From: Asterochloris sp. CNOR1
Taxonomy: Eukaryota > Chlorophyta > Trebouxiophyceae > Trebouxiales > Trebouxiaceae
Direction: 5' to 3'
DNA: 64,000 nt
Assembly (NCBI GenBank): GCA_963969365.1
Contig: OZ017755.1
Coordinates: forward strand, 310,001 to 374,000
The translations under genes and the position numbers were made by a program. The notes below the pieces were generated by a model. That model saw only the letters and a list, made by a program, of their open reading frames with translations. It made no database searches and was not told the origin of the DNA. Shown piece after piece: positions 9,601-63,456 of this stretch (position 1 is the first letter of the stretch; every line of letters begins with the position of its first letter).

Positions 9601-12600
9601 CACCACGGCTTTGCAGCCTACTACACCTACCTGGAGCACATCTTCCAGGTGGGGAATTGTGGCCGCTGAGCCTGGCAGGGTGCCGCTGCACCCAGCAGCT
9701 GCGCCTGGCTTGCCTCCTGAATGGCCCACTGTGCTGGACTCTCCTCAAGCTGTGGGACACAGATTGAGAGTGTCAGCCATCTGGCACAGCAACCGACAGC
9801 ACCAGGTCCCTGAGCCGGCGGTCGGCGTCTGATGCTGTGTTTCTGAGCATGCTGGGGCCTCCCTTGGCCAAGAAGCATGGTGCAGATCTGAGCTGAGCTA
9901 GCCTGTCAAAACCTGCCAGCCCATGCCCACCACGCTGCCCTGCAGGCCGATGCTGTGCTGCACTTTGGCACCCACGGCTCCCTGGAGTTCATGCCCGGCA
10001 AGCAGGTCGGCATGTCGGGCGTGTGCTACCCCGACAGCCTGATTGGCAGCATCCCCAACTTGTACTACTACGCTGCCAACAACCCCAGCGAGGCAACTAT
10101 TGCCAAGCGCAGGAGCTATGCAAACACCATCTCCTACCTGACGCCGCCCGCTGAGAATGCTGGCCTGTACAAGGGCCTCAAGGTGGGTGCTGTGGCTGTT
10201 TGGCTGCTTGCGGGAGCTGAGCGTGGCTGAGAAATGATCTGTAATGGCTGGCTGCATGTGGCCTGGCTTGTCAACGCAGGCTGTAGTGGATTATTGCCTG
10301 GCAGGCATGTGCAGGCTGCAGCCTCCAGCACTGCTTCTCAAAGCACTTCTGTCAGACTCTAAGGGCATGCCAGCATAACGTTGCCTCTCCCTCACACACA
10401 CCTCGGCTGAGTTGCTGCAGCACCTGCTGCACCGTCGTCTGATGCTGCTGATCAGTTATTGAAAGGCTCCTCTGTGTACCTGCAGGAGTTGAAGGAGTTG
10501 ATCTCCAGCTACCAGAGCATGAGGGAGCAAGGGCGCGGCCCAGCCATCTGCAGCACCATCATTGAGACGGCCAGGCAATGCAACCTGGACAAGGACGTGT
10601 CCCTGCCTGAAGAGGATGCCAAGGACATTGGGCTGGAGGGGCGTGACAGCGTGGTTGGGCAGGTGTACGCCAGGTGAGCTGTCCTGGAGGCTGCACAGTG
10701 CCCTCTTTCGAGCCAGGCGGGGCATAGACTCGTGCAAACAGCCCTCGCCTGGGTCGTCTGATCTTCTGAGCGGAGGTGGTTGTGTGGGCAGGCAGGTCTG
10801 GGCCAGGTGCTCTCTGCTTTGTGGCTTGCTGTGTGTCATTTACGGGCAAGGAGAATGTCCCCTGAGTGCGCCTTGTATGTGTAAGGAGGCTTGACAGCGT
10901 GACAGGGCACGCCGACTCCCGGTGAGCTATATTTGGGCGCTTGCTGTGTGTTGTTTTGGGTGGTGACAAAGTCAGACTGGAGGGAGTCCACAGCATGATT
11001 GGGCAGCTTTAGTGCAGGTAAGCTGGTCCTGAAGGCCAATACATGTTCCTATGGGCTCAGTCTGTTTGTGTCAACTGCTCGCTTGTTACGAGGCAGCAGC
11101 ACAAGCGGTTTTTTGGAGGTGCTGCGAGGAGTCCACTGTGTGGCCGTGCAAAGGACGGCTCTAGTCTGTGACTCAGACAAGAAGTCTCCTGTGGTGTGTT
11201 GACAAGCTCACCTTCGCTTACAGGCTGATGGAGATTGAGTCCCGCCTGCTTCCCTGCGGCCTGCACATTGTGGGCGAGCCCCCCTCAGCCATGGAGGCCA
11301 TCGCCACTCTGGTCAACATCGCCGAGATTGACCGCCCAGAGTGCAACCCCCCAGTCAAGGGCCTGCCAGGCATCCTGGCACGCAGCATTGGGCGCAACAT
11401 GGAGCAGATATACCTCAACAACAACAAGGTGCGGCATCTTCAGGGGAGCTGTTGTTGCTGTGGTCGCAGCGGCACCTGATGTGGGGCTTATCTCACAAGC
11501 AGGGCCTGCTGAAGCTCTCTGCAGGGAAGTTGGGCTCGTCATGTGCACCGTGAGCACTGCCTTGCAGCCTCAGCAGCAAGGCCTCACATTCTGCATTTGC
11601 GTGTGCTGGACGCTCGCATGCACTGCTACTGGAGGGTTGCTCGGCACAACGTCTCAAATTGCATCTGGAGGTCTACAGAAGCACAGTATCCCTCCAGGCT
11701 CAAAGCTGCCTCTTGCTGCTCTGCACCTTTGGCTTTCAACCCTGCTTGTCAGCTGTTGCTGCAGCTGCTTGGCTCCATTCACGCCTGTAGCGCTGTAGAA
11801 GGTCACTTTTCCTGCATGTCCAGGGCTGCTTCTTACTGGGTGGTACGCGGGAGAGCGCGCTACCTGGCCCCTGCTCCACCTAGCTCCTGCTCCACCTGTC
11901 CAGTATCCCTGTCCAGTATCCCTGCATGCAGCAAGAGACCCTCCATGCCTTCCTGCAGAGGCGTGAGCTGAGCACTGCTGCACCAACACAGCCTGGCACG
12001 TTCCGAGCAAGATGCAGCATTCTGCACCTGCAGGGTGTGCTCGAGGACGTGAACCTGAACCAGGCCATCACGGAGGTGTGCCGTAACGCTGTGCGCGCAT
12101 TCGTGGAGGACCGCACCGACCCTGCTGGGCGTGTGACCCTCAATACAATGAACAACTTCATGCAGCGGGCCACCGGGCAGGAGCCCTGGCTGTCAGCCCT
12201 CAAGGTGAGGACTGCAGCTGGGATGAGGCACTGGATGGGGGTTCATCATGCAGTGTGCCTTTGCTGATCACCTCTGCGCCTGAGCGTTTCTGCAGACTGC
12301 ACTGCAGCATGGCTGCCCGCTGAAGCAATTCTGGCCAAAAGAGCGAGGCTCCTGCAAAGCTTGCAGCTGCTCTGCTGCAAAATGCTGCTCAAGAGCCCTG
12401 TGCACACAAGAACAGGACACTGTTGCAGCGCTGCCCATCGCTGACAGGCATGTCCTCTCTGCACCTGCAGGGCACGCAGTTTGGGAAGGCCAACCGGGAG
12501 GAGCTGCGGGTGCTGTTCAACTACCTCCAGTTCTGCCTGGAGCAGGTGGTCAAGGACAATGAGCTGGGCGCTCTGAAGCAGGCGCTGGACGGAGCCTATG

Positions 12601-15600
12601 TCGAGCCAGGTGGGGTTATTGGCCTTTTGCTAGCATTTTGCAATCCATGTTGGCTTGTGCTGGACCCGGAGGGCCATGTCATTACTGGGTGTCCTGCAGC
12701 AGGTGCTGGGTCTGTGTGGCATAGGGTACAGCTGTGCTCTTCTCTCTGATTTTTGTGCTCTTGCAAGGGGTGCATGGATAGATGTATGCCCCACCCCTGG
12801 CATTTGGGGTTGGCTCCATGGAGAGGCTTTGTGGCTTTGGGCAAGCCCAGGCATGCCCAGCTAGCTGCAGGCCCCTCTTTAGGCTGTCCAGCTGGCTGCA
12901 TCACCTTGGAAGGTCAAGCCATCCGGCCGCAACCTCAGAAAGCAGGCATGACAGTCAGTCACTGTGTGCTTGCAGGCCCAGGCGGCGACCCCATCAGGAA
13001 CCCTGCTGTCCTGCCCACCGGCAAGAACATCCACGCACTGGACCCCCAAAGTATCCCCACGCAGGCTGCGTTGAAGTCTGCCAGGATCATGGTGGAGCGG
13101 TGAGTCCTGTGTTTGCAGCAGATTTGAGGTGCCAGTCGCTGTCTCGTGGCTGGCAGGATGACTGGGCAGAGACGCCAAGGGCGGCTGCGGCACCTGCGCT
13201 TCGCATGCATGTCCTATCAGTAGGAAGTACTTTTCTTGGAAGCCTGCTGAAGGCCGCTGCCGTCATCTCCATTTGTGCACCAAAAGGCACCAGCTGGAGT
13301 TGCATGGGCTGAGCGACTGTGACCCAGCCTGACCATTGGCCACCCTCACCCCTTTGGTGAACTGCTGTGCAGGCTGCTGGAGCGTCAGAAGATGGACAAT
13401 GGCAACGTGTGGCCCGAGACGGTGGCGGTCGTGCTCTGGGGCACTGACAACATCAAGACCTACGGCGAGTCCCTTGCCCAGGTGAGGCGGTTGGGTGCTT
13501 GGCATGGGCATGTGCACCACCGTTTCCTGCAGTCAGTGAGCAGGCCCTGCTGGCCCAAAGCACTTGTGACCGCCAGCAAGCTTTTTGAAGAGGCCAGCGT
13601 GCTGACCCCCGGAGGCCCCATGCTGGTGGCAGCGTGTTCCAAGCAGCAGACAGCCTGACAGCTTTGGTTACCCCAGCCATCACGCAGCCCACAAGCCTGC
13701 AGCTCCCACAGTAAGTGCGACCTGCACGCCTGCAGGTCATGTGCATGGTGGGCATCAAGCCGGTGCCAGATGCCCTGGGGCGCGTGAACAAGCTGGAGGT
13801 CACTCCTCTGGAGGAGCTGGGGCGTCCTCGCGTTGATGTGGTGGTTAACTGCTCAGGGGTCTTCAGGGACCTCTTTGTCAACCAGGTGGGGACGCTTTGC
13901 ACCTTTGCTGTGTGTCAGACAAGACTTTCTTTTGTTTTGGTTGTGAGGCATATCTCTGGGTTGGCAAGTGCGAGCAGCCTGGCAGTGTCTGCCATGGCCT
14001 GGATAGGCAGGAGCTGCCTGGCTGCAAACAAGGTGGCTTTGCAGAGACCAAACTTGCTGCCTGCCACATCTGTCCCCGCCTTTGCGGTGTTCAGGCCGCT
14101 GTTAAATGACATGGGGCTGTGTCTGCAGATGAACTTGCTGGACAGGGCCATCAAGCTGGCAGCTGAGCAGGACGAGCCAGAGGAGATGAACTTTGTGCGC
14201 AAGCACGCCCGCCAGCAGGTGGGGCAATGCGCTTGTGATCTAATGTCATAAGCGGCTCCTGCCTTGTCTCTGAGCCGGCAGGCGCCGCGGTGGAGTGCTT
14301 TGCTGGCTCCCATGTACCTGCACCGCCCTTTGCCATGTGCAACGCAGCCCATGCCGTGTCTTTTGCTGACCGCAATGTGCCCAGTTAGCGCAGCGCCCCT
14401 GAACATGCAAAGCAGCGCCTTGTGCAGGCTCAGGAGCCTGGCACTGAGTGTTTGGCAACGGCGTGGCCCCTGCCCCCTTGGCAATGCTTTGCCATCTTAT
14501 GTTGCGTACCTTTGACCCTTTTGTCCCCCTTGTGCAGGCTCAGGAGCCTGGCACCGAGTGCCTAGAAACGCTGTGGCCCCTGCACCATGGCAATGTTTTG
14601 CCATGTTGTGTTGCGGCCTTCCACCCTTTAGTCCCCCTTGTGCAGGCTAAATTGAGTCCCCTTGTGCAGGCTGAGGAGCTCGGCACCACCCTGCGTGACG
14701 CGGCGACCCGCGTGTTCAGCAATGCCTCAGGCTCCTACTCCTCCAACGTCAACCTGGCTGTTGAAAACTCCAGCTGGAGCGATGAGCAGCAGCTGCAGGA
14801 GATGTACATGAACCGCAAGTCCTTTGCCTTCAACTCTGACAGGTGGGCAGGGGCTCAGCAAGATTTGCTTGGCTCGTGTCACATGTGAGGCAGGCTGGCG
14901 GCCTGAACCCGCTCAGCAGCAGGCCTCTGTATGCTCAGGCTTATCCAGCTGATGTGTGATTATGGCGCTTGAAACCGCGTGAGCAAGCGCTTGCAACACG
15001 TGGCTGGAAGTGCCTGCCCTGTTCCGCAAACTGTCCTACACTTCAGCACCTGCAATGTGCAGTGCTGCACGCACATTTGTAATCGCTGCAATATGCTTCT
15101 GGCATCAGGGCAGGTCACTCGCTCTGTTCAGCGCGACCAGATCCTGGAAGGTTGCTTGCTGCCATTCCACATATGGACTTGGGTTCCTACCCTGCAGACC
15201 CGGTGCTGGTGGCGAGAACAAGCGTGGCGCCTTTGAGGCCGCCATGAAGACTGTGGACGTGACCTTCCAGAACCTGGACTCCTCCGAGATCAGCTTGACC
15301 GACGTGTCTCACTACTTTGACAGCGACCCCACCAAGCTGGTCTCTGGGTTGCGCAAGGACGGCAAGCTGCCCTCCGCCTACATCGCTGACACCACCACCG
15401 CTAACGGGCAGGTGAGGAGTCCAGAGTGCGCAGTACCAGCTGGGAGCGGTGCGGTGCACTGCTTTGGGTAGCAGAGTCGCCCCCACCATCACTGCCAGAA
15501 GAGAGGATGGTGTCCATATCTTGTAAGGTGCTGAGGCGGCCGCAGCCTTTTGTGGTGCTGAGACCATTGGGCCAACAGCACAGCCGAGACAATGCTAAGC

Positions 15601-16635: not shown

Positions 16636-17087
16636 TCGCACACAGGCCTCTGCTCCCGGCAGTGCAACTTGCATTGTGCCGTGGAGCTTGTCGTGTGGCT
16701 CGCTGGGCCCTCCTGGGCTGGAGGCCTCTCGCCCTCGGTCGTGTTCTGCTGCTGGGGGCCACTTGCCTCATCTTGCTTTGGCTCCCCCACTACCCCGCAT
16801 TGCCAGCCTTTGTCCCCCAAATCGAATGCAGCTTGAGTTGCTAGCAACCCCATTCTAGGCAAAGGACGGCCCCCGCTCAACCATTTTCAACTCTCAGTTG
16901 TCTGTAGCACCCCTGTCTCAATTCTTAGCTGCTGGGTGAGCTGTTGCCATAGGGCACACCCCTACCCAATGCAGCAACCTCAATGGACAGTTTTGCCTTG
17001 CGGTCGTGCCTTTTGATGCACAGTCTTCAATATTGCCAGCAGATGCGACATCGTGCACATGCGGCAACCTATGGATGAAGTCATCAG

Positions 17088-17092
17088 TGTAA
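17088..17092 (+). promoter_or_regulatory. Polyadenylation motif (TGTAA) for CHLH
   Basis: The only clear TGTAA after the CHLH stop, about 450 bp downstream. The stretch 16636-17234 otherwise holds only the presumed 3' untranslated regions of CHLH and of the convergent CYSTM gene; I see no further gene in it. Confidence 0.4.
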
Positions 17093-17234
17093 CAATTTGG
17101 TCCCATGTCTAACTGAAGTCAAGCAATCAACCCTCTAAGTAAAGATGGACAAAGCTATTCATCGCCCAGAGCTTGGATGACAATCAAATGATTTCAATCC
17201 TCAAAGGTCCGTGGCTGTGGTCCCTGTGGGGTCA

Positions 17235-18236: not shown

Positions 18237-18788
18237 CTTCGCACTGAGGAGGATGTGAAGTTGGCTGCCGCCTGATCAAACAGGGAGAGAGTCAAACTGG
18301 ACACGTGGTAGAAAAGAGAAAAACCCCTATGGAGGCTTCAGCTTCACTTTCTTGAGCACCCTCTGACGGCATCAGAGGGTTCAGATGTTGGAGGCATGGA
18401 CCACTGGATTGATTCAGCTAGCTAGCCAAACGCAGGCTTGAACACGAGGTTTGCTGGCACTGAGTGGCTCATTCATGATGTTGGGGAGAGCCGTTGCGTC
18501 CAGGCCAGACCATGCAGCATCTGAGTGAGAGCATGGGAAGACCTTGCCTGACCGCGCACTTCTGTTGTGGCCTGTGCACGGGGTTGACCTGCCTTCCATG
18601 CTTCTCCAAGAGCTGCCTTTGCGTGCTGCATAAGGCATGTGCTGTAAGCCAATGCCTGTGCTACACCTCCATACCTCTGCTGCACACCTCCACCGCAGAG
18701 TCATGCTGTTCAGAGGTGTGATCATGCCAGCTGTCAAGACATCAACTGAGTTGAGCTGTAGCTGCTGCCTCACATGTGGAGTGTGACA

Positions 18789-19655: not shown

Positions 19656-19956
19656 GCTGCCCAATCATACGCGCTCTAAAGGCCTGACAGTGTGCTTGCC
19701 CTGCATCTGGCCTCGGTGAGCAGTGTGCCTGTCATCTGCCCCACTGCCTGCCCCTGCCGCCTGTGCAGGTGCCTGCTGGTGTGGAAACAACAAGTGGCTG
19801 TGCAGGAGACCTGCGGCAGACCTGCCGGTTCACTGAGCAACAGCAGCCAATGCTCTGCAGCATTATTGCAAGTGCAGAGCAGGTCTGCCGCATCAAATTA
19901 GGTCATAGTTGCCTAACCTGATCCTGAGCCAGGAGTTTTTCCTGTGTTCACACAAC

Positions 19957-22900
19957 ATGCAGAGGGCGCTGCAGCGTTGTAGCAAGCTGCTTCCCAGCTT
20001 GTCAGGATCGCATGGACCAGCTCTCAATTTGGAAAGCATTCTGATCTCGACCGGGGCTGCTAGCAACAGGGGGTTCGCTTCTGGCGAGCTCAGAAAGACT
20101 CCCCTGCACGGGTTGCACATCGAAAATGGAGGTGGGCAGACCTGATCCAGATCAAGAAGTTGCTGCCTCTCATGAAGCAGGTTTGCTGTGCTGCACCGTG
20201 ACGCTGACTTCTGTCTGGCCCATGCCTGCAGGCAAGATGGTGGACTTCCAGGGGTGGGACATGCCTGTCCAGTACAAGGACTCCATCATGGCCTCCACCA
20301 AGCACTGCCGGGAGCAAGCCTCCCTCTTTGACGTGGCCCACATGCGAGGCGTGACAGTCAAGGTCTGACACGGGGCCATTGTTCCCTGCTGTGGCCTGAG
20401 CACGGGTCAATCCCAGTGCTCAGTAGCTGCAGGGGGTGTTAATTCACCTTTCTGTCTCTGCTGCCGCACCTTGTCCAGGGGCCTCGAACACTTTTGTGAG
20501 CAGCAGGGAGGAGCGCTATGCTGCTATACCTAGAACTGCAACCTGCTACAAGGCTGCAGGGCCGCCAGGCCGTTGACCCGCTTTCTGAGCCGTCTCTGGA
20601 TCCCGGGGGGCTGTTGCAGCCAGATGCGCATATGTCAGTGCCACCAGCAAGGAGCAGTGCACGACCAGGACTGCAAAAGCTAAGCTGCTACTGTGTGGCT
20701 GCAGAGGCCCCAGGCCATCCACTTGCTTGCGAGCTAGCTCTGTCAACTGCAGCTGCGTCTACACCTGGGCGTTCATTGCCCTGCATAGCGGCTTACAACA
20801 CAATCTTGCATTACACACCTGCAGAACCCCAGTCTGCTGTTGCTGGCCTGCAGGGCCCCCAGGCCATTGACTTTGTGGAGCACATCACGGTGGGGGACTT
20901 CCAGGGCCTCCGGAATGGCACAGGCACACTCAGCCTGATCACCAACGACAGCGGCGGCATTGTGGACGACACCGTGACCACCAGGGTGAGCCTCCTGGGT
21001 TCTGCTGCGAGGGTGAGCCTGATCTGGTGCAGAGGTCTTCAGCGTGTGGCACAGAGCAGGTGAGGGCTCGCAAAGGGCTGCTGAGTGGGTGTCTCCTTTG
21101 AGGGTCGTCAGCGTATGGCAAAGGCTTGTGGGCAGGTACAACTTGCTGTTGGCTCCCCGCTTGCGCCAGGTGACGTCGGGCGTGGTGGAGCGGTCCGCGA
21201 CGCGCTGCGCCGCACAGCACAGCATCTGCACTTGGGCAGAGCACCCGTTATCCCTCATCCATGAGCTGGAAGGAATGCAGTGTTGCAGACGGCCGACGCA
21301 AAGGGATTCTGAGCTTCACATGCAGTCACGCATGTCTGCAGCTGTGGTCATGGTGCAGCAAAGGAGAGATGATGGACAGCCCTGGCCCGCTGCCGGCAGA
21401 CCATCTGGTGTGGGTCAGTGACCCCAGCTCTGGATGCCAGACCATGGTCAAACCCAGGCAACTCTGAAGTGCTGCAGGTCCCCAGGCGCCCCAGCGGTCA
21501 TGCTTCGGCCTGACTGAGCCCATGTCGCACCCTGCCGCCCTGCTGTCGTGTTGCAGTCCGCTCTCACAGCCCGAATGCTGGGCCGGCAGTGCTGACAAGA
21601 CACTGTCATGACTGCTTGGTCTGCCCTGCCTGCTGGACCTGCATGCCGCGCTTGCCTCATCATGCCTTGCCCTGCCTGCCTGTGCAGGTTCAGGATGACG
21701 ACGTGTACATGGTGCTCAATGCGGGCTGCGCAGAGAAGGACTTGGAGCACATGGAGCGCCAAGACGAGGTCTTCAAGGTGATCCCGGGGTGGGCCATGTC
21801 TCAGCTATGAGCTAGCTGCCGATGCTTGTACGGTGCAGGGTGTGTCAGTGAAGTGACCGCAGCCTGTCTGTCCAGAGCCAAGCAGGGCATGGCAGTGCAG
21901 GGTCTGGGCAGGGCTTGTCAGCTGAGAGGGTGTCAGTGCAGGATCCAGAAAGGGCCTGTCGCAGCAGGGGTTGGGCTGACTGGGGAGAGCATGCAGGCAG
22001 CCAAAGATCATCTGTGCAGGCAGTGCTGGTGGGGGGCCAGGGCCAGGTGATCTGTCAGGACGCAGCTGCAGGCAGGGCTTGGCAGTGCAGGACGAGTCAG
22101 AGCCCACTAAGGTGTTCAAGGTGGAGAAAGGGCTGCGGCAGAGGATCTTCCATCTGGGCCTGCCTGGTGCCACTGACAAAGAGTTGCTGCTCCCAGAATT
22201 TTCATGACGGCTTTTGTCCTGTCATAACAGCTGCTGGTGGCTTGGTGTCCGTTTTGGCTCTGCTGCCCAGGCAGGGCAAAAGCGGTCTTTACGTAAATGT
22301 GCAGTCCACGCAGCACAAAAGCAGTCTTCAACTGCTTGTGCAGGCCAAGTACAAGAAGGAGCATGGGTCTGAGCCCAAGTATGAGCGCATCCCTCACTGG
22401 GACCGCTCCCTGCTGGCCCTCCAAGGCCCTGCGGCTCATGAGGCGCTGCGCACTCTGGTGCCCTCCTCCTTCAACCTGGACAAGTTCTACTTTGGCCAGT
22501 TCGCCACCACCTCGCTCAAGGGCATCCCCGCCTGGGTCACCCGCGTGGGGTGAGGGCAGCAAATGCTGACTCATGGAAGTTGCTGCAGTTGTGGGCACAG
22601 AAGCAAGTGTTTAGCGCGGCATCTGCTTCCGGCTCCTTCGTGGTCTGCTGCATGCTCTCTGTGTGGAGACCATCTCAGGTGTGGAAGCATGTAATTGCTG
22701 AGCTGGTGGCTTGGCAGGACATCGTGCGGCGATGCAGGTACACGGGCGAGGACGGATTTGAGATTTCTGTGCCCAACGACAAGGCAGTGGAGCTGGCCCA
22801 GCTGATGCTGGAGATTGACGGTGTGCAGCTGGCTGGGTTGGGGGCGCGCGACTCCCTGCGGCTGGAGGCTGGGCTGTGCCTATACGGTGGGGCTGGGTTG

Positions 22901-24741
22901 TTGGGCGACTGCGCCAGGTTCAGGCAGACAAACCTGTGCTTGGCACCAGCAGCGCCCTCCAATGCAAAACTGGGCCCTGCCTGTGCAGTGAATATCGGCA
23001 GGTTGATGTGCAGACTACCAACCCTGGGTTGCACCGCTCATGCTAGGGGCAGGGAAACTATGCCAGGTGTGTGCCTTATGCAGCATCTCTTTCAGGTCCA
23101 TCAGGGCGGCTCTGACCATGGACTGCGTGAAGTGGGGGCTGTTCCTGGCTGTGCCGCAGATTTGCAAGCAGAAGCTGGGCCATGCCTCCTGCTGTGTACC
23201 CTGCAGACTGCTGGTGCGATGGCTGCTCAGATGCACAAGGCAAGGAGGGCCAAGCCAGCGTCTCTTGCTGCTGGTATGTCAGGCTTGCAAATGATTGTCA
23301 GGCAAGAGCAGCAGGACCTTGCTTCTTGCTATTTTGTACTGCAGGCTCAGGGACATTCTTAGGCTGTCGCCAGCTGGAGAGCATCAGTGCCCCTCCACTA
23401 ACAATGTCTCGAGGCTGCCACCTCTGCCACTGCTGATGCCACTCAGATGATGATGCAGGCCGAGCCATCATGCAGAAGTCTGCAGCAGGCTATGATGGAT
23501 TGTGTAGTCAACCGCCTGCCTGCAATCAAGTGCCTGCCTGCCTGGCTGGTCACACTGCCAAAAGAGACACAAATCTCATGCTGACTGGGCTGACTTTTGC
23601 CAACAAGACCGCCAAGCACAGTGACACAGGCACGGCTGCCAAAATGCTAGGGATGCCGGTTGCGTCTTCTACAAGTCGAAGTGCTGCCCGTGCCCTGCAG
23701 GCCACGACATCAAGGATGACATCAACCCCATTGAGGCTGGGCTGCTGTGGACCATTGGCAAGCGGCGACGCGAGAAGTGGGACTTTGTGGGCGGCGATGT
23801 CCTGCAGAAGCTCCACGCCGACAAGTCGCACACCCACCGCCGCGTCGGCTTCTTTGGGCAGAAGGGGGCCCCAGCGCGGGAGGGAGCAGAGATCCAGACT
23901 CCTGACGGAAAGAAGGTGAGGGCAGCGGGGTGCCTTTTCAGGCACAGCTGGTCGTGCTGCGTCCCCCCACACAGATTCAGACACCTGACGGTAGGCAGGT
24001 GCGGGGCACCAGGGTGCCTCAAGAGCTCCAACTGCCCAGTTTAGGCTCTGTAGGGGCAGCAATTGCATGTAAAAGCCAAGCCCCTGCATGGGATGGCACA
24101 CCAGCAGACCTCTGACAAAAAGAAGGTGAGGGGCACTGGAGGCTGTCTGAAATGATCATGCTTACCAGGAATCCAAAGGGCAGCAGGCGCCTCCAGAGCT
24201 AGTCCCTGCGGGATCCATGCAGATTGCCCTGACGGGAAAGAGGTGAGGGGCACTGGAGAGCCTTGAGATCTGCATCATGCTTACACATGCAAACGAGGGG
24301 CAGCAGGCGCCTCTGAAGCTGCCTCCCTTACCCTTCCGTGCACTTTCAGGTCAGATGTGGGGAAGGCTTGGGCAGGTGATGCCTAAAGCTGCCTTGAATG
24401 GCGTTGGGATCAGCCTGCACCGGGTCCAGCCTGCTTTCTGTGCTGCTGCCACAGCAGGTCAGGCCCTGAGAGAGGGCACCTCAGTGCTGGGCATTTCACT
24501 GGTCTCATGTCTTGTCCTCCTGAGTGCTGCAGGTGACGGATGTCTGTGACTGACTGTGCAGGTTGGCACTGTGACCAGCGGAGCCTTCAGTCCCTGCCTG
24601 GGCAAAAATATCGGCATGGGTTACGTGGAGAAGGGGCACGGCAAGGCTGGGACTGAGCTGAGGGCAGTGGTGCGGGGCAAGACAAACACCATCGAGACAG
24701 CCAAGATGCCTTTTGTGGAGGCAAAGTACTTCAAGCCGTGA
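19957..24741 (+). CDS. GCST: Aminomethyltransferase, T protein of the mitochondrial glycine cleavage system
   Basis: Transfers the methylene group of the lipoyl-bound aminomethyl intermediate to tetrahydrofolate and releases ammonia; central to photorespiratory glycine oxidation. Exons: 19957-20131, 20232-20362, 20854-20985, 21688-21777, 22344-22549, 22738-22886, 23701-23915 and 24562-24741. Total 1,278 nt, 425 aa. The first about 45 residues ([30 protein letters not shown]) are a mitochondrial presequence. Then [20 protein letters not shown] starts the enzyme. Family blocks: [36 protein letters not shown] (contains the catalytic Asp), [14 protein letters not shown] and [18 protein letters not shown]. 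The C-terminus is FVEAKYFKP. Intron 6 is about 810 bp, with unrelated repeats. MRG replaces the more usual MCG/MLQ after the DVxH block; otherwise ordinary. Confidence 0.96.
20554..20880. repeat. Tandem copies of the GCST exon-3 acceptor junction
   Basis: The exon-3 acceptor plus exon start (CTGCAG|GGCCCCCAGGCCATTGAC at 20848) is preceded by copies at 20554 (CTGCAGGGCCGCCAGGCCGT) and 20699 (CTGCAGAGGCCCCAGGCCAT), spaced 145 and 149 bp. From the first copy's AG (exon start 20560) the frame is open for 98 codons into the true exon. Confidence 0.82.
23895..24260. repeat. Tandem copies of the GCST exon-7 donor junction
   Basis: The last codons and donor of exon 7 (CAGACTCCTGACGGAAAGAA then G|GTGAGG, from 23895) recur at 23978, 24104 and 24220, the last two keeping GGTGAGGGGCACTGGAG after the copied codons. 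The copies alternate with a GGGGCAGCAGGCGCCTC block. Confidence 0.8.
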
Positions 24742-26992
24742 ACGCAACGCTTCCCTTTTTCCTCACAGCTTTTGAGTGCAGCATGTCAATTTTGAGAAGG
24801 AGCAGGCACCTGCCTGTCTCGTGATGCCTTCTGCATGCGTCCCCAAGGAATGCACACTCCTTTACACTGCAATTGATGCTCGAGCACTGGCTCTGAACAA
24901 TACCTGTTGTTCTGGTTGGTCCCTGTGATGTCATAGGCACATTGCTACATGTTGGTAGGTGCCTGATGTAAAGGTTCTATTGTCAGGCCATGCTGTAGAC
25001 CGTCATGGCAAGAAGCTCAGGTACAGCTGCAATTGCTGCTGCGCCTGGCTGATGCCCCCATGCTGCCAGGCACACTGTTGCGTGGCGCCTGCAGGCGATT
25101 GCCAGGGCAGGAGCAGGTGTGCAAAGGTCCACCAGAATGTACAGGCTAATATGGTACTGGGCAGGTCCTGCGGCATCGAATTTTATCCTGCAAACCTGCT
25201 TAGTGGCAGTCGATGAGCAAGTTCTTGCTTGAGCAGGGCCTGCAAGCAGCATTGGCTGCCACTGCGCAGTACCTTGGACTGAACAGGTGATGCTGCCGCT
25301 TGTTCCTGTACAGGACCTGCTTCAGAGGCAAGTGTGTGGCATGCATTCATGCAGTCGTGCAGGGCTTCAACAGGCCAGAGGTGCCGCGCAAGGCCTGCAG
25401 TCTTTCTGGCGGCCATCAGACCTGAGCGACTGCGTCCCAGACTTGTTGCGCTTGAGCTGCGCCTCCAAGAGGCAGTAGCAGCAGCGCAGACTGCCACTCA
25501 TGAGGCCTCTCTGCAGCTTTGGGTTGGCAGTAAGCCTGACTTGAAAGTTCCCATGCGCTGCCTCATGTCACTGGCTGCCCCCTGGGTTTGCAAAGAGGTT
25601 CTGGCTTAGCTTCTCCCTCAGATTGCCACAACGTCGTCCACACTTTTGCTGTAAGGACAGCTCTGCTTGCTGTTGAGGATGAGTCTATTCATGAACTTAG
25701 GTGTGTGAGGCTGAAGCGGTCAACATGTATGGTGTACTTGAGGTCTTCTCAGTTTCAGAAGGGCCTGCCTAAACATCAGTCTTCAATGAGGAGGTGAGGC
25801 TACTTTGAAGGACTGCCTGAGCTCAGCAACATTCAGAACCTCATGCAGACCGCTTTGTGTGCAGGATGCTGACAACGACAGCAGGGGCACAGTTCTGGCA
25901 GCGCTGTAGGCAAGTTGAGGAGGCAGGCAGGGCAGGTGTGTGTGGGCCAGCTGCGGCCTGCCCAGTGCTGCTCTCCACAGTCCTGCTGCTCTGTCCAAGG
26001 CGCCTGGGCACAGCGCATGCTGCTCTCAGATGGCCACATGGAAGGGCTGAGTGCTGACTTTGTGCACTAGAATCAGAACTGGCTGGACACAGAGAAGGGC
26101 CCCTGTACAGTATCTTCATGTTTCACTTATATTCAACCCTGGGTTGGCCATGCCCCTCTTACCCTGTTGTGGGCCATGTCTGGCAGTGCACTGTAGCAGA
26201 GACTCAGGTGCAAGCAATCTGCTGCATCTGAAATTCCATAGCAGAGTGTCACAGAACCCAGGGAACACTTGCTGTCGCACTCAAGGACTCAGGGCTCGAC
26301 CTGGCAGGCTTGATGGGTGGTCGCAGGCACCCTCAATTAAATGGTGGTCATTGCAGGTGTTCAGCCCTGCAATGCGTGCCAGGTTACACAGGCGCCCAGC
26401 AGGGGGCCGTCAGGTGCTGGTACTGCGAGGGGCCTGGCCGGTGGGATCGCCCCGAGGTCTAACCTTCGCATCTGGCAGGACCGCTGGCACCACAGGCAGC
26501 TTGGTGGTCTGGGGGAGTCAGGCAGGGTGCTGTTCCTTCCTGCTGTCATTGCCGAGGACTGCTCACCACGGGCACTTGCAACTGCCATTCCTGCCTGTTG
26601 TCTGTGCCAAAAGATACCCAGTGGCAGGCACTGGCAGATGGTTAGCTCACTGGCTGCACCAGCAATGGAGCCTGAGCAGACGCAAGCCATGCAGCGTGCC
26701 CGTGATGCCCCCCTAGGGGCCTTTTGCAGCCCTGAACAGGCCTGTTGCAGCCCTAAAACCCACATGTTACATACATGCCTCCCTGCATGTAACATGTGGG
26801 TTTAAGGGCTGCAAATCACCTGCTTTGCTGCTGCTGCTTGGCAGGTCGTACACATCAGGACACTTGTGAGGTGGACTTGGGTCAACTCGTGCCTTGTGTG
26901 CACCTGACTTCTCGTGCCTGCATTCAGGCATCCGCCTTCCCCAGACAGCTCTCCACAGCTACACCCCTTACAAGCCAGGCTCGAACCCCACC
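24742..26992. other. Gene-poor interval between GCST and the thioredoxin gene
   Basis: A TGTAA at 24967-24971 fits the GCST 3' end. I find no ORF here with clear family features. A minus-strand stretch at 25183-25497 looks mildly coding but has no good start. A strong hairpin lies at 26745-26814. The interval may hold a non-coding RNA or a diverged gene I cannot read. Confidence 0.5.
26745..26814. repeat. Long near-perfect inverted repeat (28-bp arms, one mismatch)
   Basis: Arms 26745-26772 (TTGCAGCCCTAAAACCCACA..) and 26787-26814 pair over 28 bp with a single A/A mismatch around a 14-nt loop. It lies 180 bp upstream of the thioredoxin ATG. A partial copy of the left arm's start (TTGCAGCCCTGAA) occurs at about 26725. 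Compatible with a microRNA-like precursor or a miniature inverted-repeat element. Confidence 0.85.
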
Positions 26993-35860: not shown

Positions 35861-38800
35861 ATGGAGACCTCTCTGATCTCGTCAATCTGGTGGGGCACCC
35901 CACAATGTCAGACTGGAGCTTGTAGGGGTCCAGCCAGCACAGTGCCGCACCAGACAGCCCGTTCTGATGGTCCTTCCCAAAGGAACGAGAGGGACTCAGC
36001 ATCCTCAGGCGGTTCTGAGGACTCAGAGACTGTGCAATGCCAGTGGGCGACTTCAGACATGCAATCTTCACATCAGCCTACAAAACCACTTGCACCGTTT
36101 ACATCGACCATCAACAAGAAGGCATTGCAGGCGGCGGCCATCTTGGCACAGGAGAGCTGCAGGTGTGCCGCCTGTCTTCTGCTCATGCTCCTGTCCTTGA
36201 CCACTGCAGACTGACAAGGTCATCATTGCTGACAGGCCTGCACATCCTAGCTCTGGACGCTGCCATGCCCTTTGACTTTGAAGCAAGAGCCCAGCAGCAG
36301 ATGCAGTCGCAGCAGCATCTGCGGGTCGGCATCGTTGGCTTTGGAAAGTTTGGACAGTTCCTGGCGAGGCGCCTCATCGCCGCTGGGCACCAGGTGAGCT
36401 CCTCCAGCCGTGGTTGGTCAAGCTGTGCACCATGCTGCTGGGCACCAGGTGAGCTCCTTTGGGGCACCAGGTGAGCTCCTTTGCAGCCTGGTCAAGCCGT
36501 CCCCTCAGCAAGTCAGCACTTGTGAGCTGTGCATAGTGCATAGCCTTGGTCAGGCATTTGCTGCTGGGAGGGCCTCCGCCAGCCCCTTGATCACCCGAGC
36601 CGCCAGGGTCACGCAGAGGTGCTGGGGCAGTGCTCCCAGAGCAGCTGTACAGCCCAGTCAAGCCGTGCACCCCGCTTGCTGCTCAGACTACCTGGGCATC
36701 CTAAGCAGCTGCTTCAGCTCTTCATCAGTGAGAGCAGCAGTACCAGCATCTGTACATCTGCTTTGGACACCAAATGAATGGCACCAATGCTTATAACGTC
36801 TTGGCCAAAGCACAATTGTGCGCAGCACTTGTTGCGCTGCAGCCAAGGCAGTCAACCCCTACGTATAGAGACGGCAGTATCAATTTCCTCACAGACCCTT
36901 CCCAGGCCCTGCAGCTCCACAGCCCCATTATGCCCTAACAGGCGCATCCACTTGGCCTGTAGCTGCTAGCCACTGTGCGTGACGTCTGCAGCTTGCCCTG
37001 TCTCCTTCCCAAATGCCTCTCATTAGCATGCAGCCTGCCCTCAGGTGCTGGCTGCAGTAAATCCAACCAGTAGGATCTGCAGTTTACAGTCATCCAGATC
37101 CATCGCACCCACCTGCACCCTGCTCTGGCTGCAGGTGCTGGCCACGTCACGCGGCGACTACAGCGGACCAGCCGAGGCCATTGGCGCTGAGTTCTTTGGC
37201 GACATAGACGATTTTGCTGAGGAGCACCCCGACGTGGTCATCCTGGCCACCTCCATCCTCTCCACCGCTGCAGTGCTGGAGAGTCTGCCCATCGCACGCT
37301 TCAGGCGCAGCACCCTGTTTGTGGACGTCCTGTCAGTCAAGGAGTTCCCCAAGCAGCTGCTGCTGGACCGTCTGCCCAGGCAGGTAGGGTGGCGCATCTT
37401 GCGCCGTTTTTTGTTATGTGCTGCCCTGGATGACCTGCTATCAGGAGCCTGTATGAGGGGACGGGCAGGAATGCTGGGCTTGCCGGCTGATGCAGGAGAG
37501 GCGGGGCATACCTTGGCTGCTTTGCTTTGATAAAGTAATTTCAGGAAGCTTGTGTACGCGTGTGGCGGGTTTGCGTGCTTTCTAGCTGCTGCAGGTGGCC
37601 TGGCAGTCCCAACCAGGAATTTTTGCAAGAGTCCTCGTTGCAGCAGATTGAGGCGCCTGTGACTGGGCCAGGGCTCTGCTGTGCGCTGATGTTTTGATAC
37701 CTGCTGCCGGGCAGCTGGGCTGGGCCTGTGCTGCCCTGCTGAGTCATCCTCTGCTCAGATACTGAAAGGCATGGTGCCCGACCGAGCACTGCAAGCCACA
37801 AAGGGCTGTTGCTGCTCTGATGGACAGGTGAAGGAGCCTGTGCCAGTCAGCACTCGACACTCAATCAGTGAGCTGCAGTGTGAGACAGATGCAGAGGCGG
37901 TCGGCCTGCTGGTGTGTCGCACCGCCGTCAGGGGTATTCCTCCCGCTGTCCGGAGAGTCAGTGCCCCTCCTGTGCCTGCAGATGGACGTCTTGTGCACGC
38001 ACCCCATGTTTGGGCCGGACAGCGGCAAGGGCAGCTGGGTCGACCTGAACTTCATGTTTGAGAAGGTCCGCGTTGGGGAGGACCCTCGGCGGCAGGAGCG
38101 CGTTGAGACTTTCCTGCAGGCAAGTCCTCACCACAGTCTGGCCACCTCTCTACAGTCCGGCCCCTCTCTGCAGTGCAGCTCCTCTCTGTGCCTAAGGCCT
38201 TGTGCTGCCTGCTGCTTGGCCCTGTCTTGCCCCATTGAGGCTGGCAGACTTTGCCGTCATGATCTCCTCGCTGGCATGTTGGCTGGCCTGATCTAAGTAC
38301 GTGCCAGGCTTGGCAACCGCCAGCAGTGCCTTCACACAGGCTGCCATCGAACTCCTGTGGACCGCCCTGCACCTGTATGCATCGCTGCACAGGTCCAGCG
38401 TGTTTGCTGTGCAGCAATTGCACAGGAAGCCTTGCCCTCTGGGCTGTACAATGCACAGCAGTGCAGCCTGGCACTTGACTTTCTTGACCGTAATGTATCC
38501 CCCGCGAGCCGCCCCTGCGCAGAACATCTTGGCGCCCCCTGACCTGAGCTGACCAGTTCCTGTCATCCCTGCTGTGCAGTTCTTTGCTCAGGAGGGCTGC
38601 AACATGGTGGAGATGACCTGTGAGGAGCACGACAGGCAGGCTGCCAGCACCCAGTTCATCACCCACACAGTCGGCCGCATTCTGGGGACGATGGACCTCC
38701 AGGTGAGGCCCTGCAGCCTTGGTAACAGGAGCTACCCACCTGTGTGCAGCGCTGCATGCGCATGTGGCCCCTTGGCTGGCAGCTGCAGCCTGCAAGCTTA

Positions 38801-43500: not shown

Positions 43501-43867
43501 GTACTGCCTGCAGGGTGCCACAGCTGTTGCAGTGGCATCTGCCCTGCCTGGAGGCAGGCAATGCTCCTCGGCAGACCAGTGTGCTGTCTGCAGGGGCATT
43601 GTGCAGGAGTCTGGCCTGGCCGGCTTGGTGTCTGGCAGCGTGGGTAGCAAGCCTGGTGGTAGCATCCCAGCAGCATCAGCAGCCCATGGGCCAGCGGCAG
43701 GCGCCACCAGCGCTGCTAAGGTGCTGCAGCAGCAGAACGACCAGCTGCAGGCCAAGTTGGAAGAGGCACTGGATGCGGCCAACAGCTGGAAGTCGCTGCA
43801 TGGCAAGCTGCACCAGTTCTGTGTGCAGCAGCTCCTCTCCACCGGCCAATTTGGAGCAGCCACCTGA
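40532..43867 (+). CDS. IPI3: WD40 protein Ipi3/WDR18 (Rix1 complex, 60S ribosome assembly)
   Basis: WD40 subunit of the Rix1/PELP1 complex that processes ITS2 and matures pre-60S particles in the nucleus. Exons: 40532-40602, 40673-40811, 41160-41318, 41570-41724, 41900-42012, 42360-42581, 42839-42964, 43154-43340 and 43594-43867; 1,446 nt, 481 aa. The start exon MAAGLHQQIALVASPTDGAA is a 71-nt exon found by joining into AWDVRTGTLVATWKGN. WD strands follow: ITAVVASPDGSFVAGGAASG, VTALVFSQDGSLLLSGGEDT, LPVTDIHVGAGQ, AITASLDRTCRVWSIAQG, YAGAVDGCIFAGDL and EDGALVVWDLPTRQPVRTLQ. After a Ser/Gly-rich linker comes the family's C-terminal coiled coil (KVLQQQNDQLQAKLEEALDA..LHQFC). The repeat order and the coiled-coil tail match animal WDR18. 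Intron 3 has a GC donor (AAG|GCAGGC). Confidence 0.9.
43360..43525. repeat. 70-bp tandem repeat in the last IPI3 intron
   Basis: Units beginning CTTGCCTGCAGGGTGTTGCA at 43363 and 43433 and a partial third at 43503 (ACTGCCTGCAGGGTGC). Each unit contains CCTGCAG and CTGCACCTGCAT, i.e. decoy acceptor-like sequences. Confidence 0.85.
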
Positions 43868-60700: not shown

Positions 60701-63456
60701 TGCTTCTTGTTGGGCAAAAAGGGGCTGATACGCTTCTGTGGGCACGCATCTGGTCTGTCCTCGCCGCCACCTGCAGCAGCTCAAGTCTTGACACTGTTGG
60801 CCTTGCGTCGTGACCTTGTGCTAGTGTCACGGATGACCCCACCTGCGTGCAAAGATGGCGCCCAATGTGGTGCATCCAGGCCCCTGGGCAGAAAAAAATG
60901 GCGACTCGATTGTTGTCTAGGCAGGGGGAGACCCTGCTGCATCCATTTTGCAAACACCAGTCCTGTAACCTGAGACCGTGGCATATTGTCTAGATGAACT
61001 GCTGTCTGCAGGGGCAAGAGTCGCGGCAGTGATTTCGAGACCTTCAGCTTCAGGGAGCGTCAGATGAGGCTGCGCACAGGCATGAACGAGAGATTGCTGG
61101 AGGCAGAGCGGGGAGTCCCCATCAGCCCGCCGCCAGCTGCGCTACGCCGCGCAGTCAGCGCAGTCCTCCAGAGCGGGCAGGAGAAGGTGGTACAGCGCAG
61201 TGCCAGCCGCATGCACGAGCGCCTGGGGCCGCAGCACACCAGGTGGGGGGTTGATCATCTGCACAGGGAGTTTCGACCATCGTGGGCTTGCTTGGGGCCG
61301 CGGTGGAGGTTTGTCCCCTGCACAGGCAATTTGACGATAGTGTGCTTGCTTGGGGCCGCTGCAGACCAGGTGGGGGCTTGTCATCTGCACACGAGGTTTC
61401 TTATTGTGTGCTCGCTTGGGACCGCAGCAGACCAGGTGGGGGTTCCTTATCTGCAGTTTCGACCAGTGTTGTGTTTGCTTGAGTAGCATAGCCTGTGGCA
61501 GACCAGGTGTGGCCTGACATATCCCAAGCAGGCCTTGCAACAACAGAGGCACATGACTTGCGAAGCGCTTTGCGCTGGCAGGTCGAAGGCCTGCAGCAGA
61601 GCGGCTCTCAGAGTAAACAACATATAATCAGTTGCCTAAAGCTTGTGCTTCTTGCCTGTGGCACAGCGTAGCGTAAGCCACATGCACAAGCGGCTCGTTC
61701 CAACCTCTGGTGGGCACAAGTGCATGCATCTGGTTGACCGACGGGTTGATTGCGTGCTGCGTCTGCAGGGCTGAGGAGATCCGGCCCCTGCCGGCCTCCT
61801 CCCGCCTGCGGGACTCCCTCAAGGTGCGGGCCAAGAAGCTTGGGTGGGCTCCAGATCGGGTGGGCACAGCCTCAGCCACAAGCGCGTTCCATGAAGCCGG
61901 GGCTGCCCCTCCGGCCCCCACAACTCCAGAGCAGGAGAGCAAGGGCGGGCTGCAGGTGCAGGGCTCTGATGGCGGGCCCCAGACACAGGTGGGGCCTGGC
62001 CTGGCTGTGTGTGCAAGCGTCGGCCAGGGCCCCCGTCCACAGGTGGCCTGGCTTGTCTGCAGCAGATGCTCTGGGCCAGCAAATGGGCTGCTCCTGTACA
62101 CTTGACCCCCTCACGGAGTAGCCCACACCTCTAGGCACAACATTGGGCTCCCCTGCCATGCACAATTCACTTGCACGGACCAGCAGTTGCATCAGGCAGT
62201 GCAGCCTGTGCACGCACTGCATGGGCTAAGCATGCAATGCCCCCTGGCCTTTCATGCAAAGTCTTCTAGCACTGTAGCACTGTGGACGCAGAGCTCCGCT
62301 TTGTAGCGGGCGCTGCCAGCAAAGCTCAGAGGACTTCGGGGTGAGGCACACAGCTTGGGCTTGCCACCTCAAGGCTGGGCTGCATGCCTGAGGTCCCACC
62401 TTTCATCTCCACTGTGCAGGGCAGCACTGACTTTGTCGAAGATCTGGGCATGCAGCAGCCTACACGCATGGATCTGGACTTTGTGGCTCACGGCTCAGGA
62501 GACGAAGACGCCAAGCATGCTGTGCGTGCGAGCGACTACAGGCTGCCCCGCAGCGCGCGGCGGCCCGGGGCGCAGGTGTGTTCCAAGGCTAAAGCAGAGC
62601 ATGGCCCTCCGCGGAATTCAGGGTGCTGCCTCACAGTGCTCGGCCCTCCGGCCACCAGCTCCATCCCAGATGGGGCTGCTTGATGCGCTCAGTCAGCTTG
62701 AGCTGCAGGGGTGCCAGCCAGTCTGTTGAGCCATGTGGAGCATGTGCTCACCTGCCTGGCGACGCAGCCACCTGCTCCGGCACCGCGCCACCTCGCGCTG
62801 AAACCTTGGAGCTCTGCTGCAGGGTAGCTCAGCCGGTGGAGACACCTGCACGCAGCACAGCCACCTCCACATTGTGCAGGTTTTGTCGCACCCGCTGCCG
62901 ACATAGAGCTCTAGCCCACCATCTGCAGTTTCCATTACTTGCTGGACAACCAGCTTGTTCCCATTCCCCCTGTGGAGCAAACCTCAAACCCACAATGCCT
63001 CCTGAACGATGAACGCCTTCTTCTGGCACTGAGGTGCTTCTGCTGCACGGCCGCCAGCCTGTGCCCGCCGGGCCCCATAGTGCACCCCACAGCCACAGTG
63101 CCTGCTCAACAACCAATGCCTCCATCTGATGCTGGACTGATTCTGCTGCAGGGCCGCCAGCCCATGCTCCTTGCGCCCCATGGAGCAACCCACAGCCACA
63201 GTGCCTCCTCAACGACTGACGCCTCCAGTTGACACTTGACTGATTCTGCTGCAGGGCCCCCAGCCTGTGCACCTGGCCCCTGTGCAGCAGCCTGCCCAGA
63301 TTGATCGCCTGCAGCGTGCAGTGGACCAAGGAGCTCACTACCAGAGGGAGGCTCTGAAGCTGCGCCAGCAGCAGCTGGAGAAGGGAGCCGTCGTGGGGAG
63401 GCGCAAGATCGGCAAGCGCCAGCAGGCGGCACAAGTGGCAGCTCAGCATCATGCAG
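54751..63456 (+). CDS. Armadillo/HEAT-like repeat protein, tandem copy 2 (runs off the right edge)
   Basis: Paralogue of the preceding gene. Exons: 54751-54972, 55122-55187, 55261-55302, 55612-55774, 56316-56458, 56774-56843, 57111-57210, 57453-57591, 57851-57959, 58181-58312, 58825-58946, 59366-59597, 59952-60041, 60337-60556, 61012-61242, 61769-61988, 62420-62575 and 63255-63456. The frame is kept over 886 codons, ending in mid-codon, so the gene continues. ARM-like units include RTIMQKLVRSLKPSCRVHPR, NLLRLIQAGEPDSVVMACNV, VLIKVLRSSAHTNATRVAAA, LELMVKAINNANQPSCQRAA, ALLELAPSIGDATESLGWAL, GSLAQLMKLEDAGIKRSMLH and GLPQLVGCAQLMDCPEASII. The tail is different from copy 1: Arg/Ser-rich (EERGRSRTRRDRRRGSENLR), then FRERQMRLRTGMNERLLEAE, then a coiled-coil-like RLQRAVDQGAHYQREALKLR. 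Intron 1 needs a GC donor (AAG|GCGAGC). The start could be 54724. Confidence 0.7.
61222..61510. repeat. Tandem copies of the ARM2 exon-15 donor junction
   Basis: The exon end and donor (CCTGGGGCCGCAGCACACCA then G|GTGGGGG..ATCTGCAC, from 61222) recur at about 61291, 61349 and 61415 (CTTGGGACCGCAGCAGACCA then GGTGGGGG), with a stub near 61495 (GTGGCAGACCAGGTGTGG). Three of the five keep ACCAG|GTG. Confidence 0.85.
63038..63290. repeat. Tandem copies of the ARM2 exon-18 acceptor junction
   Basis: ATTCTGCTGCAG|GGCCCCCAGCC (true acceptor 63254) is preceded by copies at 63140 (TTCTGCTGCAGGGCCGCCAG) and 63038 (same but CTGCAC, so the AG is lost), spaced 103 and 102 bp. Use of the intact copy would read into TGA after 25 codons. 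Confidence 0.82.

What the first reader, a model, noticed from the sequence alone, without database searches (positions are those of the whole stretch)
10644..63290. Introns carry tandem decayed copies of their own exon-intron junctions
In at least seven introns of four unrelated genes (CHLH twice, GCST twice, TyrA, ARM2 twice) the intron contains two to four tandem copies of the adjoining splice site together with 10-40 nt of flanking exon and some intron. Copies decay with distance, and the copies at acceptors lie upstream while those at donors lie downstream, so each array includes the true junction. This points to a genome-wide process of local tandem duplication across splice junctions that lengthens introns and creates alternative sites. 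Intron gain by duplication of AGGT-containing exon sequence is known; repeated junction duplication inside existing introns as a general habit of one genome is, as far as I know, not described.
Basis: partly seen in the sequence, partly recalled or inferred. Interest (0 to 1): 0.85.

Follow-up and report, generated by a model that had tools for sequence, protein, structure and literature searches.

The report
Introns holding copies of their edges
In this green-alga-like genome about one intron in seven of a strict sample contains decayed copies of its own exon-intron border, and they look mostly like leftovers of ordinary local DNA duplication that survive because the extra copy is spliced out.

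Summary
All seven named arrays are present. In 344 kb (two regions of a 56.4 Mb genome; 659 introns from my own gene finder) junction-spanning copies lie in the own intron at 27 of 473 donors and 36 of 467 acceptors (40 and 43 pairs; under 1 pair each expected). In a strict subset 44 of 301 introns carry one.

Local copies also fill intron interiors. Junctions exceed interior points 1.7-fold at donors (CI 1.07-2.47) and 2.3-fold at acceptors (1.50-3.31); simulations without junction targeting give 0.92-1.40. "Decay with distance" is not supported (18 versus 16). No frame bias suggests alternative exons.

Best explanation: neutral local tandem duplication, exon constraint, and a splicing filter. 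Blocks under 60 nt are nearly absent at acceptors (2 of 36; simulation 27 of 92), as expected if the used acceptor must keep its branch point, 20-39 nt upstream. Unexplained: acceptor copies cluster 94-106 nt away (15 of 36), and acceptors exceed the simulation. Duplications across intron-exon junctions are known as single cases; the listings I saw held no genome-level count.

The parts
10640..10680 (+). CHLH donor junction 10673|10674 (exon end plus intron start), source unit
   Evidence: homologues continue VYSxLMEIES without insertion
10773..10813 (+). copy 1 of the CHLH donor junction in the intron (66% identity)
   Evidence: family D2
10888..10928 (+). copy 2 of the CHLH donor junction (76%)
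   Evidence: (lag 248)
10984..11024 (+). copy 3 of the CHLH donor junction (68%)
14658..14687 (+). CHLH acceptor junction 14669|14670 (true site by homology)
   Evidence: consensus HAxQQAEExG without insertion
14526..14555 (+). upstream copy of the CHLH acceptor junction
   Evidence: families D10 and D11
14416..14445 (+). second upstream copy of the CHLH acceptor junction, 110 nt further
   Evidence: (score 226, between the two copies)
20837..20871 (+). GCST acceptor junction 20853|20854
   Evidence: PDB alignment reads through
20688..20722 (+). upstream copy of the GCST acceptor junction
   Evidence: family D9
20543..20577 (+). second upstream copy of the GCST acceptor junction
   Evidence: (lag 294)
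23902..23931 (+). GCST donor junction 23915|23916
   Evidence: PDB alignment continues DGKK/VGTVTSG
23985..24014 (+). copy 1 of the GCST donor junction
   Evidence: family D4
24112..24141 (+). copy 2 of the GCST donor junction (taken as a donor by my gene finder)
24229..24258 (+). copy 3 of the GCST donor junction
   Evidence: (lag 117 from copy 2)
36379..36403 (+). TyrA donor junction 36393|36394
   Evidence: PDB alignment reads through
36434..36458 (+). copy 1 of the TyrA donor junction, 96% identical
   Evidence: family D16
36456..36480 (+). copy 2 of the TyrA donor junction (80%); 36440-36483 is a perfect 2 x 22 nt tandem
61221..61253 (+). ARM2 donor junction 61242|61243
   Evidence: gene model only
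61348..61380 (+). copy of the ARM2 donor junction (88%)
   Evidence: family D8
61414..61446 (+). copy of the ARM2 donor junction (82%), 66 nt further
61498..61515 (+). short copy of the ARM2 donor junction
   Evidence: family D12
62981..63289 (+). three 103-nt head-to-tail units; the last holds the ARM2 acceptor junction 63254|63255
   Evidence: (score 571); gene model only

Best explanation
This genome undergoes frequent short-range tandem DNA duplication (blocks of roughly 20-200 nt). Blocks inside introns survive. Blocks that straddle an exon-intron border also survive, because they duplicate the splice site as well: the gene keeps using the outermost site, so the added copy, with its slice of exon, lies inside the intron and is removed. 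The extra copy then decays freely while the exon half of the original is held by selection, so junction copies stay recognisable on the exon side. At acceptors there is an added filter: the used (downstream) acceptor is preceded only by the intron part of the block, so the block must carry branch point, pyrimidine tract and AG; short blocks are lost. Shown: the copies, their local direct geometry, their frequency in the sample, the interior background, the exon-side peak, the short-lag deficit and the branch-point-like motif position. Inferred: neutrality, the choice of the outermost site in cells, and the splicing filter.
For: Interior introns carry the same kind of local copies (80 of 473, 78 of 467). 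The positional profile is highest on the exon side of each junction and falls over about 75-90 nt of exon. In simulation the decline into the exon comes out when straddling blocks are accepted, is flatter and lower when exons change at the intron rate (run D), and is gone when straddling blocks are rejected. Junction/interior ratio at donors 1.68 (1.07-2.47) against simulated 0.92-1.40. Pair-based ratio: observed 2.24 and 2.65, simulated 4.36, 2.21, 2.25 and 1.47 in runs A-D and 1.63, 1.69 and 1.31. Branch-point-like CTCAC, CTGAC and CTAAC number 35, 29 and 6 at 20-39 nt before the AG end, against 2-13, 6-17 and 0-3 in the other 20-nt bins (316 introns). Nearest copies with lag <60 nt: acceptor 2 of 36, simulation 27 of 92, p 0.0005; donor 4 of 27, p 0.07; strict set acceptor 0 of 25, donor 3 of 21. 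Lags show no multiple-of-three bias (acceptor 14/12/10, donor 10/8/9). Mismatches in the exon part are only slightly higher at third codon positions (168 of 648, 170 of 646, 209 of 646; p 0.051), as expected of non-coding copies. TyrA has a 55-nt-lag copy (96%) and, in it, a perfect 22-nt tandem, so the process looks recent as well as old.
Against: Acceptors exceed every ratio (2.26, CI 1.50-3.31, against at most 1.40, CI to 1.71). In the larger simulation the junction (0.062) stands only slightly above the interior (0.052), less contrast than observed (about 0.07-0.09 against about 0.03). By region the observed ratio is donor 2.10 and 1.41, acceptor 2.03 and 2.49, with wide intervals. Acceptor lags cluster at 94-106 nt (15 of 36; scan p 0.0007 against length-weighted interior lags of 60 nt or more), which a plain size filter does not predict; donors do not cluster. 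Splice letters in copies are kept somewhat more often than the same letters in interior copies (GT intact 16 of 21 against 157 of 345, p 0.007; TGCAG 18 of 33 against 14 of 39, p 0.15; AG 23 of 33 against 256 of 424, p 0.36; several motifs tried, uncorrected), though a gene finder that sometimes picks the copy as the site would cause this. The block-length list and rates of the simulation were set by hand, and two runs of one setting gave junction/interior intron ratios of 0.36 and 0.26. No RNA data.
Confidence: 0.66

Rival explanations
1. Junction-targeted duplication: something about splice junctions (for example co-transcriptional breaks or R-loops at splice sites) raises the local duplication rate there, especially at acceptors, possibly with a unit of about 100 nt.
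For: Acceptor ratio 2.26 (1.50-3.31) above simulated 0.92-1.40; acceptor lag cluster 94-106 nt in both regions, 7 of 15 and 8 of 21, and 11 of 25 in the strict set.
Against: Donors show neither the cluster (4 of 27) nor a clear excess; a decline into the exon needs no targeting; with a gapped exon-only query the acceptor lags spread more widely, 14 of 33 copies between 80 and 139 nt; the 94-106 window was chosen after seeing the data.
Confidence: 0.2
2. The copies are functional: extra acceptors and donors (or cassette pieces) used in alternative splicing, kept by selection.
For: Slightly raised retention of GT and TGCAG in copies.
Against: No reading-frame bias in lag, only a weak third-position excess, copies about 70-77% identical to the source; possible gene-finder bias in the retention test.
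Confidence: 0.08
3. The arrays mark introns born by tandem duplication of AGGT-bearing exon sequence (Rogers model), so that donor and acceptor are copies of one another.
For: Three of 658 introns have donor and acceptor windows alike in register at score >=80, with 0.00 expected; near L022:5400-5850 repeated CTGCAG|GTGGG-like units can read as acceptor and as donor.
Against: Three of 658 cannot account for 44 of 301 introns with junction copies; the best case (L027:312-504) looks like an acceptor copy read as a donor by my gene finder.
Confidence: 0.04
4. Chance similarity between splice consensus, TGCAG-rich composition and intron sequence.
For: At low thresholds controls are also high (acceptor score >=70: 194 of 442 own, 738 of 2210 other).
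Against: At score >=100 own 42 of 442 against 15 of 2210; exon-only queries without any splice consensus still find copies.
Confidence: 0.01

Closest known systems
[quoted passage not shown] abstract and passages seen)
   Same: A tandem duplication that includes an existing intron-exon structure with putative branch site, pyrimidine tract and 3' splice site; the paper also mentions an 83-bp tandem duplication within an intron of the same gene.
   Different: There the duplication made a new intron and exon, one case. Here the copy is swallowed by the existing intron, at roughly 6-9% of the junctions sampled.
Tandem duplication and intron sliding in Drosophila (PMC2891723; passages seen)
   Same: Regional tandem duplication with a splice-competent site, then intronization of one copy.
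   Different: There coding sequence with a proto-splice site gives a new intron position; here pre-existing junctions are duplicated, and in the five homology-checked cases the protein reads on unchanged.
Rogers (1989) AGGT duplication model (as described in PMC4974935)
   Same: Tandem duplication near AG|GT.
   Different: Its mark, donor and acceptor copied from one another, is found in only 3 of 658 introns.
Introners (PMC9860276, search listing only)
   Same: Repeated sequence inside introns of many genes.
   Different: Introners are shared between introns of different genes; here junction windows match their own intron and seldom others.
Intronic minisatellites / local tandem repeats (general knowledge)
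   Same: Head-to-tail short repeats in introns, overlapping range of lags.
   Different: Here one member of the array is the live splice junction with exon sequence; otherwise the same kind of event.

Membership tests
Local tandem duplication (minisatellite-type) | Copies lie in the same orientation and locally, head to tail | tested here: met
   Ungapped direct copies at lags 18-300 nt, nearly absent against other introns; three 103-nt units at 62981-63289. Full head-to-tail coverage was seen in single arrays, not scored for every pair
Local tandem duplication (minisatellite-type) | Also found away from junctions | tested here: met
   Intron interiors: 66 of 432 pieces have local copies, control 0.005; intergenic sample too small (3 of 34, control 0.029)
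Rogers-type intron gain | Donor and acceptor regions of the intron are copies in register | tested here: not met
   3 of 658 introns at score >=80, expected 0.00: present but far too rare
Rogers-type intron gain | Intron absent in relatives at that position | not testable with these tools
   The genome 'has no relatives here'
Introners | Near-identical sequence shared by introns of different genes | tested here: not met
   Junction windows against other introns: 0.5-0.7% at score >=100, against 8.6-9.5% in the own intron; whole introns were not compared with each other
Alternatively spliced duplicated exon edges | Copies keep frame and coding constraint | tested here: not met
   Lag modulo 3 even; mismatches 168/648, 170/646, 209/646 over codon positions
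Alternatively spliced duplicated exon edges | Transcript reads use the inner sites | not testable with these tools
   No RNA data available
Junction-targeted duplication | Junctions duplicated more than intron interiors beyond the effect of exon constraint | tested here: inconclusive
   Donor 1.68 (1.07-2.47), acceptor 2.26 (1.50-3.31), simulation 0.92-1.40

The most novel reading that the evidence does not exclude
Acceptor junctions of this alga are duplicated as units of about 100 nt (branch point, pyrimidine tract, AG and some exon) more often than chance and exon constraint explain, with an acceptor-specific ruler, building introns that carry ladders of pseudo-acceptors spaced about 100 nt apart. 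This would point to a splicing- or transcription-linked duplication step, or to selection for a particular spacing of competing acceptors.
Probability: 0.15. Interest if true: 0.75.

Novelty: new variant of a known kind. Interest (0 to 1): 0.5.

Why it matters
It shows a quantifiable way in which introns lengthen and gather near-cognate decoy splice sites without changing the protein: 44 of 301 introns in the strict sample. The exon half of each array is held by selection, so these arrays are a record of local duplication next to coding sequence, and they form a natural set for asking how a spliceosome picks the outermost of several nearly identical sites. The acceptor size filter gives a testable link between branch-point distance and which duplications survive.

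Tried and rejected
First gene-finder version (one strand at a time) merged nearly all genes and was dropped; the two-strand version was used. It models GT donors only and was wrong near two of the seven named junctions; I corrected these by homology in the text but left the counts as computed, so counts include such errors. A count of strict window introns used a wrong denominator (93, minus-strand coordinates); one search gives 11 of 67.

A simple simulation without small indels gave no junction peak relative to the interior (about 0.05 against 0.06). Later settings: one search runs A-D gave introns-with-junction-copy to introns-with-interior-copy ratios of 0.65, 0.36, 0.34 and 0.22; one search gave 0.26 (all accepted), 0.26 (blocks >=60), 0.22 (>=80) and 0.00 (none accepted); observed 0.34 donor, 0.46 acceptor. 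One search gave point-wise ratios 1.40, 1.05, 1.05, 0.92, 1.20 and 1.34.

Single-lag periodicity of introns: the autocorrelation shows only a weak excess at lag 97 (z 4.7) among many lags, and intron lengths are not clearly multiples of a unit; dropped as a general claim. Donor lags show no cluster. Decay with distance rejected. Whole-intron unit duplication (same lag at donor and acceptor) was looked for by eye and is not general. The intergenic comparison failed for want of intergenic sequence in the sample (34 pieces); exons of 250 nt or more also carry local copies (19 of 108 pieces, control 0.037), 16 of them at lag under 60 nt, which I take as coding repeats.

Literature: searches listed no paper that by title or start of abstract counts junction duplications inside existing introns. 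I saw only the listed rows (for example 20 of 39, 15 of 157, 15 of 30, 12 of 21, 15 of 42), and subscription journals are mostly missing. PMC4974935, PMC2891723, PMC6652019 and PMC12712428 were seen in passages only; the others as listings.

Full report
What was looked at. The window is G000:C10:310001-374000 of a 56,383,464-base genome in 21 contigs. The closest named CHLH proteins are from Trebouxia (83%), Myrmecia (82%) and Coccomyxa (80%). Size, about nine introns per gene (659 in 75 of my gene models) and 58-59% G+C in the sample fit Asterochloris glomerata as described in PMC6652019 (56 Mb, 9 introns per gene, 98% of the genome at 56-62% G+C; passages); a Trebouxia assembly had nuclear contigs of 48-50% G+C (PMC12712428, passages). 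The name Asterochloris is an inference. So the counts come from 344 kb in two regions, not the whole genome.

Gene models. CHLH, GCST, TyrA-like, thioredoxin-like, WD40 and ARM-repeat genes were recognisable in the window (names from my reading of the translations and from the finding, checked against databases only for CHLH, GCST and TyrA). Homologues read through the named junctions of CHLH, GCST (aminomethyltransferase 1wsr) and TyrA (prephenate dehydrogenase 1, 5t95) without an insertion. The two ARM2 junctions rest on the model.

The observation. All seven arrays exist. Examples: CHLH donor 10673|10674 with copies at 10773, 10888 and 10984; GCST donor 23915|23916 with copies at 23985, 24112 and 24229; ARM2 acceptor in the last of three 103-nt units at 62981-63289.

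Against chance. Gapped windows of 40+40 nt score >=100 in the own intron at 38 of 442 donors and 42 of 442 acceptors; the same windows in other introns of similar length, 11 of 2210 and 15 of 2210 (442 of 659 introns used). Ungapped spanning pairs: donors 40 pairs in 27 of 473 introns, acceptors 43 pairs in 36 of 467; the other-intron controls sum to under 1 pair each over the lag bins shown. Exon sequence alone finds copies: at threshold 90 acceptors 33 copies in 23 introns (2.7 expected), donors 43 in 35 (2.0 expected), from 597 introns before the exon-length filter. In the strict set (both exons >=90 nt with good coding score) 44 of 301 introns hold a copy of one of their junctions, 2 of them of both; in the window 11 of 67 strict introns do.

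Against the interior. Windows inside introns also have local copies: 94 of 1188 at score >=100 on either side, 44 and 56 on one side. A point-wise comparison gives junction/interior 1.68 (95% CI 1.07-2.47) for donors and 2.26 (1.50-3.31) for acceptors; by region 2.10 and 1.41 for donors, 2.03 and 2.49 for acceptors. The excess over control is highest just on the exon side of the junction (0.066 donor, 0.086 acceptor) and falls to near zero over 75-90 nt of exon; inside the intron it is 0.034-0.062 between 15 and 120 nt from the junction, and 0.023-0.034 deeper save for one bin at 0.046.

A model without targeting. I simulated tandem duplication at one rate everywhere, with decay, small indels and deletions in introns, slow change in exons, wholly exonic duplications discarded and straddling ones accepted. 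Rates and block lengths were set by hand. Run B gave junction copies in 0.067 of introns and interior copies in 0.186, against 0.057 and 0.077, and 0.169 and 0.167, observed; a larger run of that setting gave 0.054 and 0.206. A decline into the exon came out when straddling blocks were accepted, was lower and flatter when exons changed freely (D), and was gone when straddling blocks were rejected. In the larger run the junction (0.062) was only slightly above the interior (0.052), so the observed contrast is not fully matched. Over six further settings the point-wise ratio was 0.92-1.40. Donors fit this within error. Acceptors lie above it; the intervals of the frozen-exon (1.15-1.71) and double-indel (1.05-1.68) runs overlap the observed one.

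Size filter. Nearest copies under 60 nt away: acceptors 2 of 36, donors 4 of 27, interior 35 of 78 and 39 of 80. Long blocks straddle a given point more often, and the simulation includes this; it still gives 27 of 92, so acceptors are short of small lags (p 0.0005) and donors perhaps (p 0.07). In the strict set acceptors have 0 of 25 and donors 3 of 21. CTCAC, CTGAC and CTAAC are concentrated 20-39 nt before the acceptor AG end, the expected place of a branch point (general knowledge). After a straddling duplication the used downstream acceptor is preceded only by the intron part of the block, so that part must hold the branch point and tract. This would explain why acceptors need longer blocks than donors. 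It is an inference from geometry, not a test in cells.

What remains. Acceptor lags cluster at 94-106 nt: 15 of 36, 7 of 15 in contig 1 and 8 of 21 in contig 10; a scan test against length-weighted interior lags >=60 nt gives p 0.0007, and the strict set has 11 of 25. Donors have 4 of 27. The gapped exon-only search shows a broader acceptor hump, 14 of 33 copies at 80-139 nt. The window was noticed after the fact and no fresh sample was available. Splice letters in copies are not lost preferentially; GT and TGCAG are kept somewhat more than in interior controls (GT intact 16 of 21 against 157 of 345; TGCAG 18 of 33 against 14 of 39), with a possible bias from mis-called junctions and no correction for the several motifs tried.

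Function. Lags are spread evenly over the three frames and exon-part mismatches are only slightly more frequent at third positions (p 0.051), so nothing here suggests that copies are translated. RNA evidence is needed.

Comparison with print. Tandem duplication of a stretch with an intron-exon junction is known from potato RdRp, where it made a new intron (PMC4974935, passages), and tandem duplication and intron sliding are described in Drosophila (PMC2891723, passages). The rows listed by the searches showed no paper that counts junction duplications swallowed by existing introns; several searches listed only part of their hits, and the library lacks most subscription journals. I therefore rate it a new variant of a known kind, of moderate interest, with a bolder acceptor-ruler reading left open.

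Noticed in passing
L022:5400-5850 (C10:379400-379850 of the genome): Repeated CTGCAG|GTGGG-like units that can serve as acceptor and as donor; the predicted intron L022:5467-5661 (195 nt) has donor and acceptor copies at lags of about 94-97 nt, so it is about two units long.
   Followed up: partly
L027:312-504: Predicted intron whose donor and acceptor windows match in register (score 143), probably an acceptor copy read as a donor: a possible route to a split or new intron.
   Followed up: partly
L008:8712-8895: Young donor-junction array, lag about 75 nt, best copy 90% identical, the highest-scoring donor array of the sample.
   Followed up: no
window 14633-14669: By eye, the CHLH acceptor also carries a very short-lag copy (about 24 nt) of the CCCCTTGTGCAG stretch with almost no exon part.
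   Followed up: no
window 38119-38120: The TyrA exon that homology requires ends at CTGCAG|GCAAGT, so this intron seems to have a GC donor; my gene finder, which knows GT only, ended the exon early.
   Followed up: partly
window 43363-43517: Two 70-nt tandem units (90% matches) inside a predicted intron of the WD40-type gene, with CTGCAGGGTG motifs.
   Followed up: no
window 26745-26813: Long inverted repeat seen by eye (TTGCAGCCCTAAAACCCACATGTTACATACATG ... CTGCATGTAACATGTGGGTTTAAGGGCTGCAA), perhaps a hairpin or small mobile element; not examined.
   Followed up: no
exons of the sampled genes: 19 of 108 exon pieces of 250 nt or more carry local copies (control 0.037), 16 of them at lag under 60 nt, suggesting that coding sequence also takes in short repeats.
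   Followed up: partly
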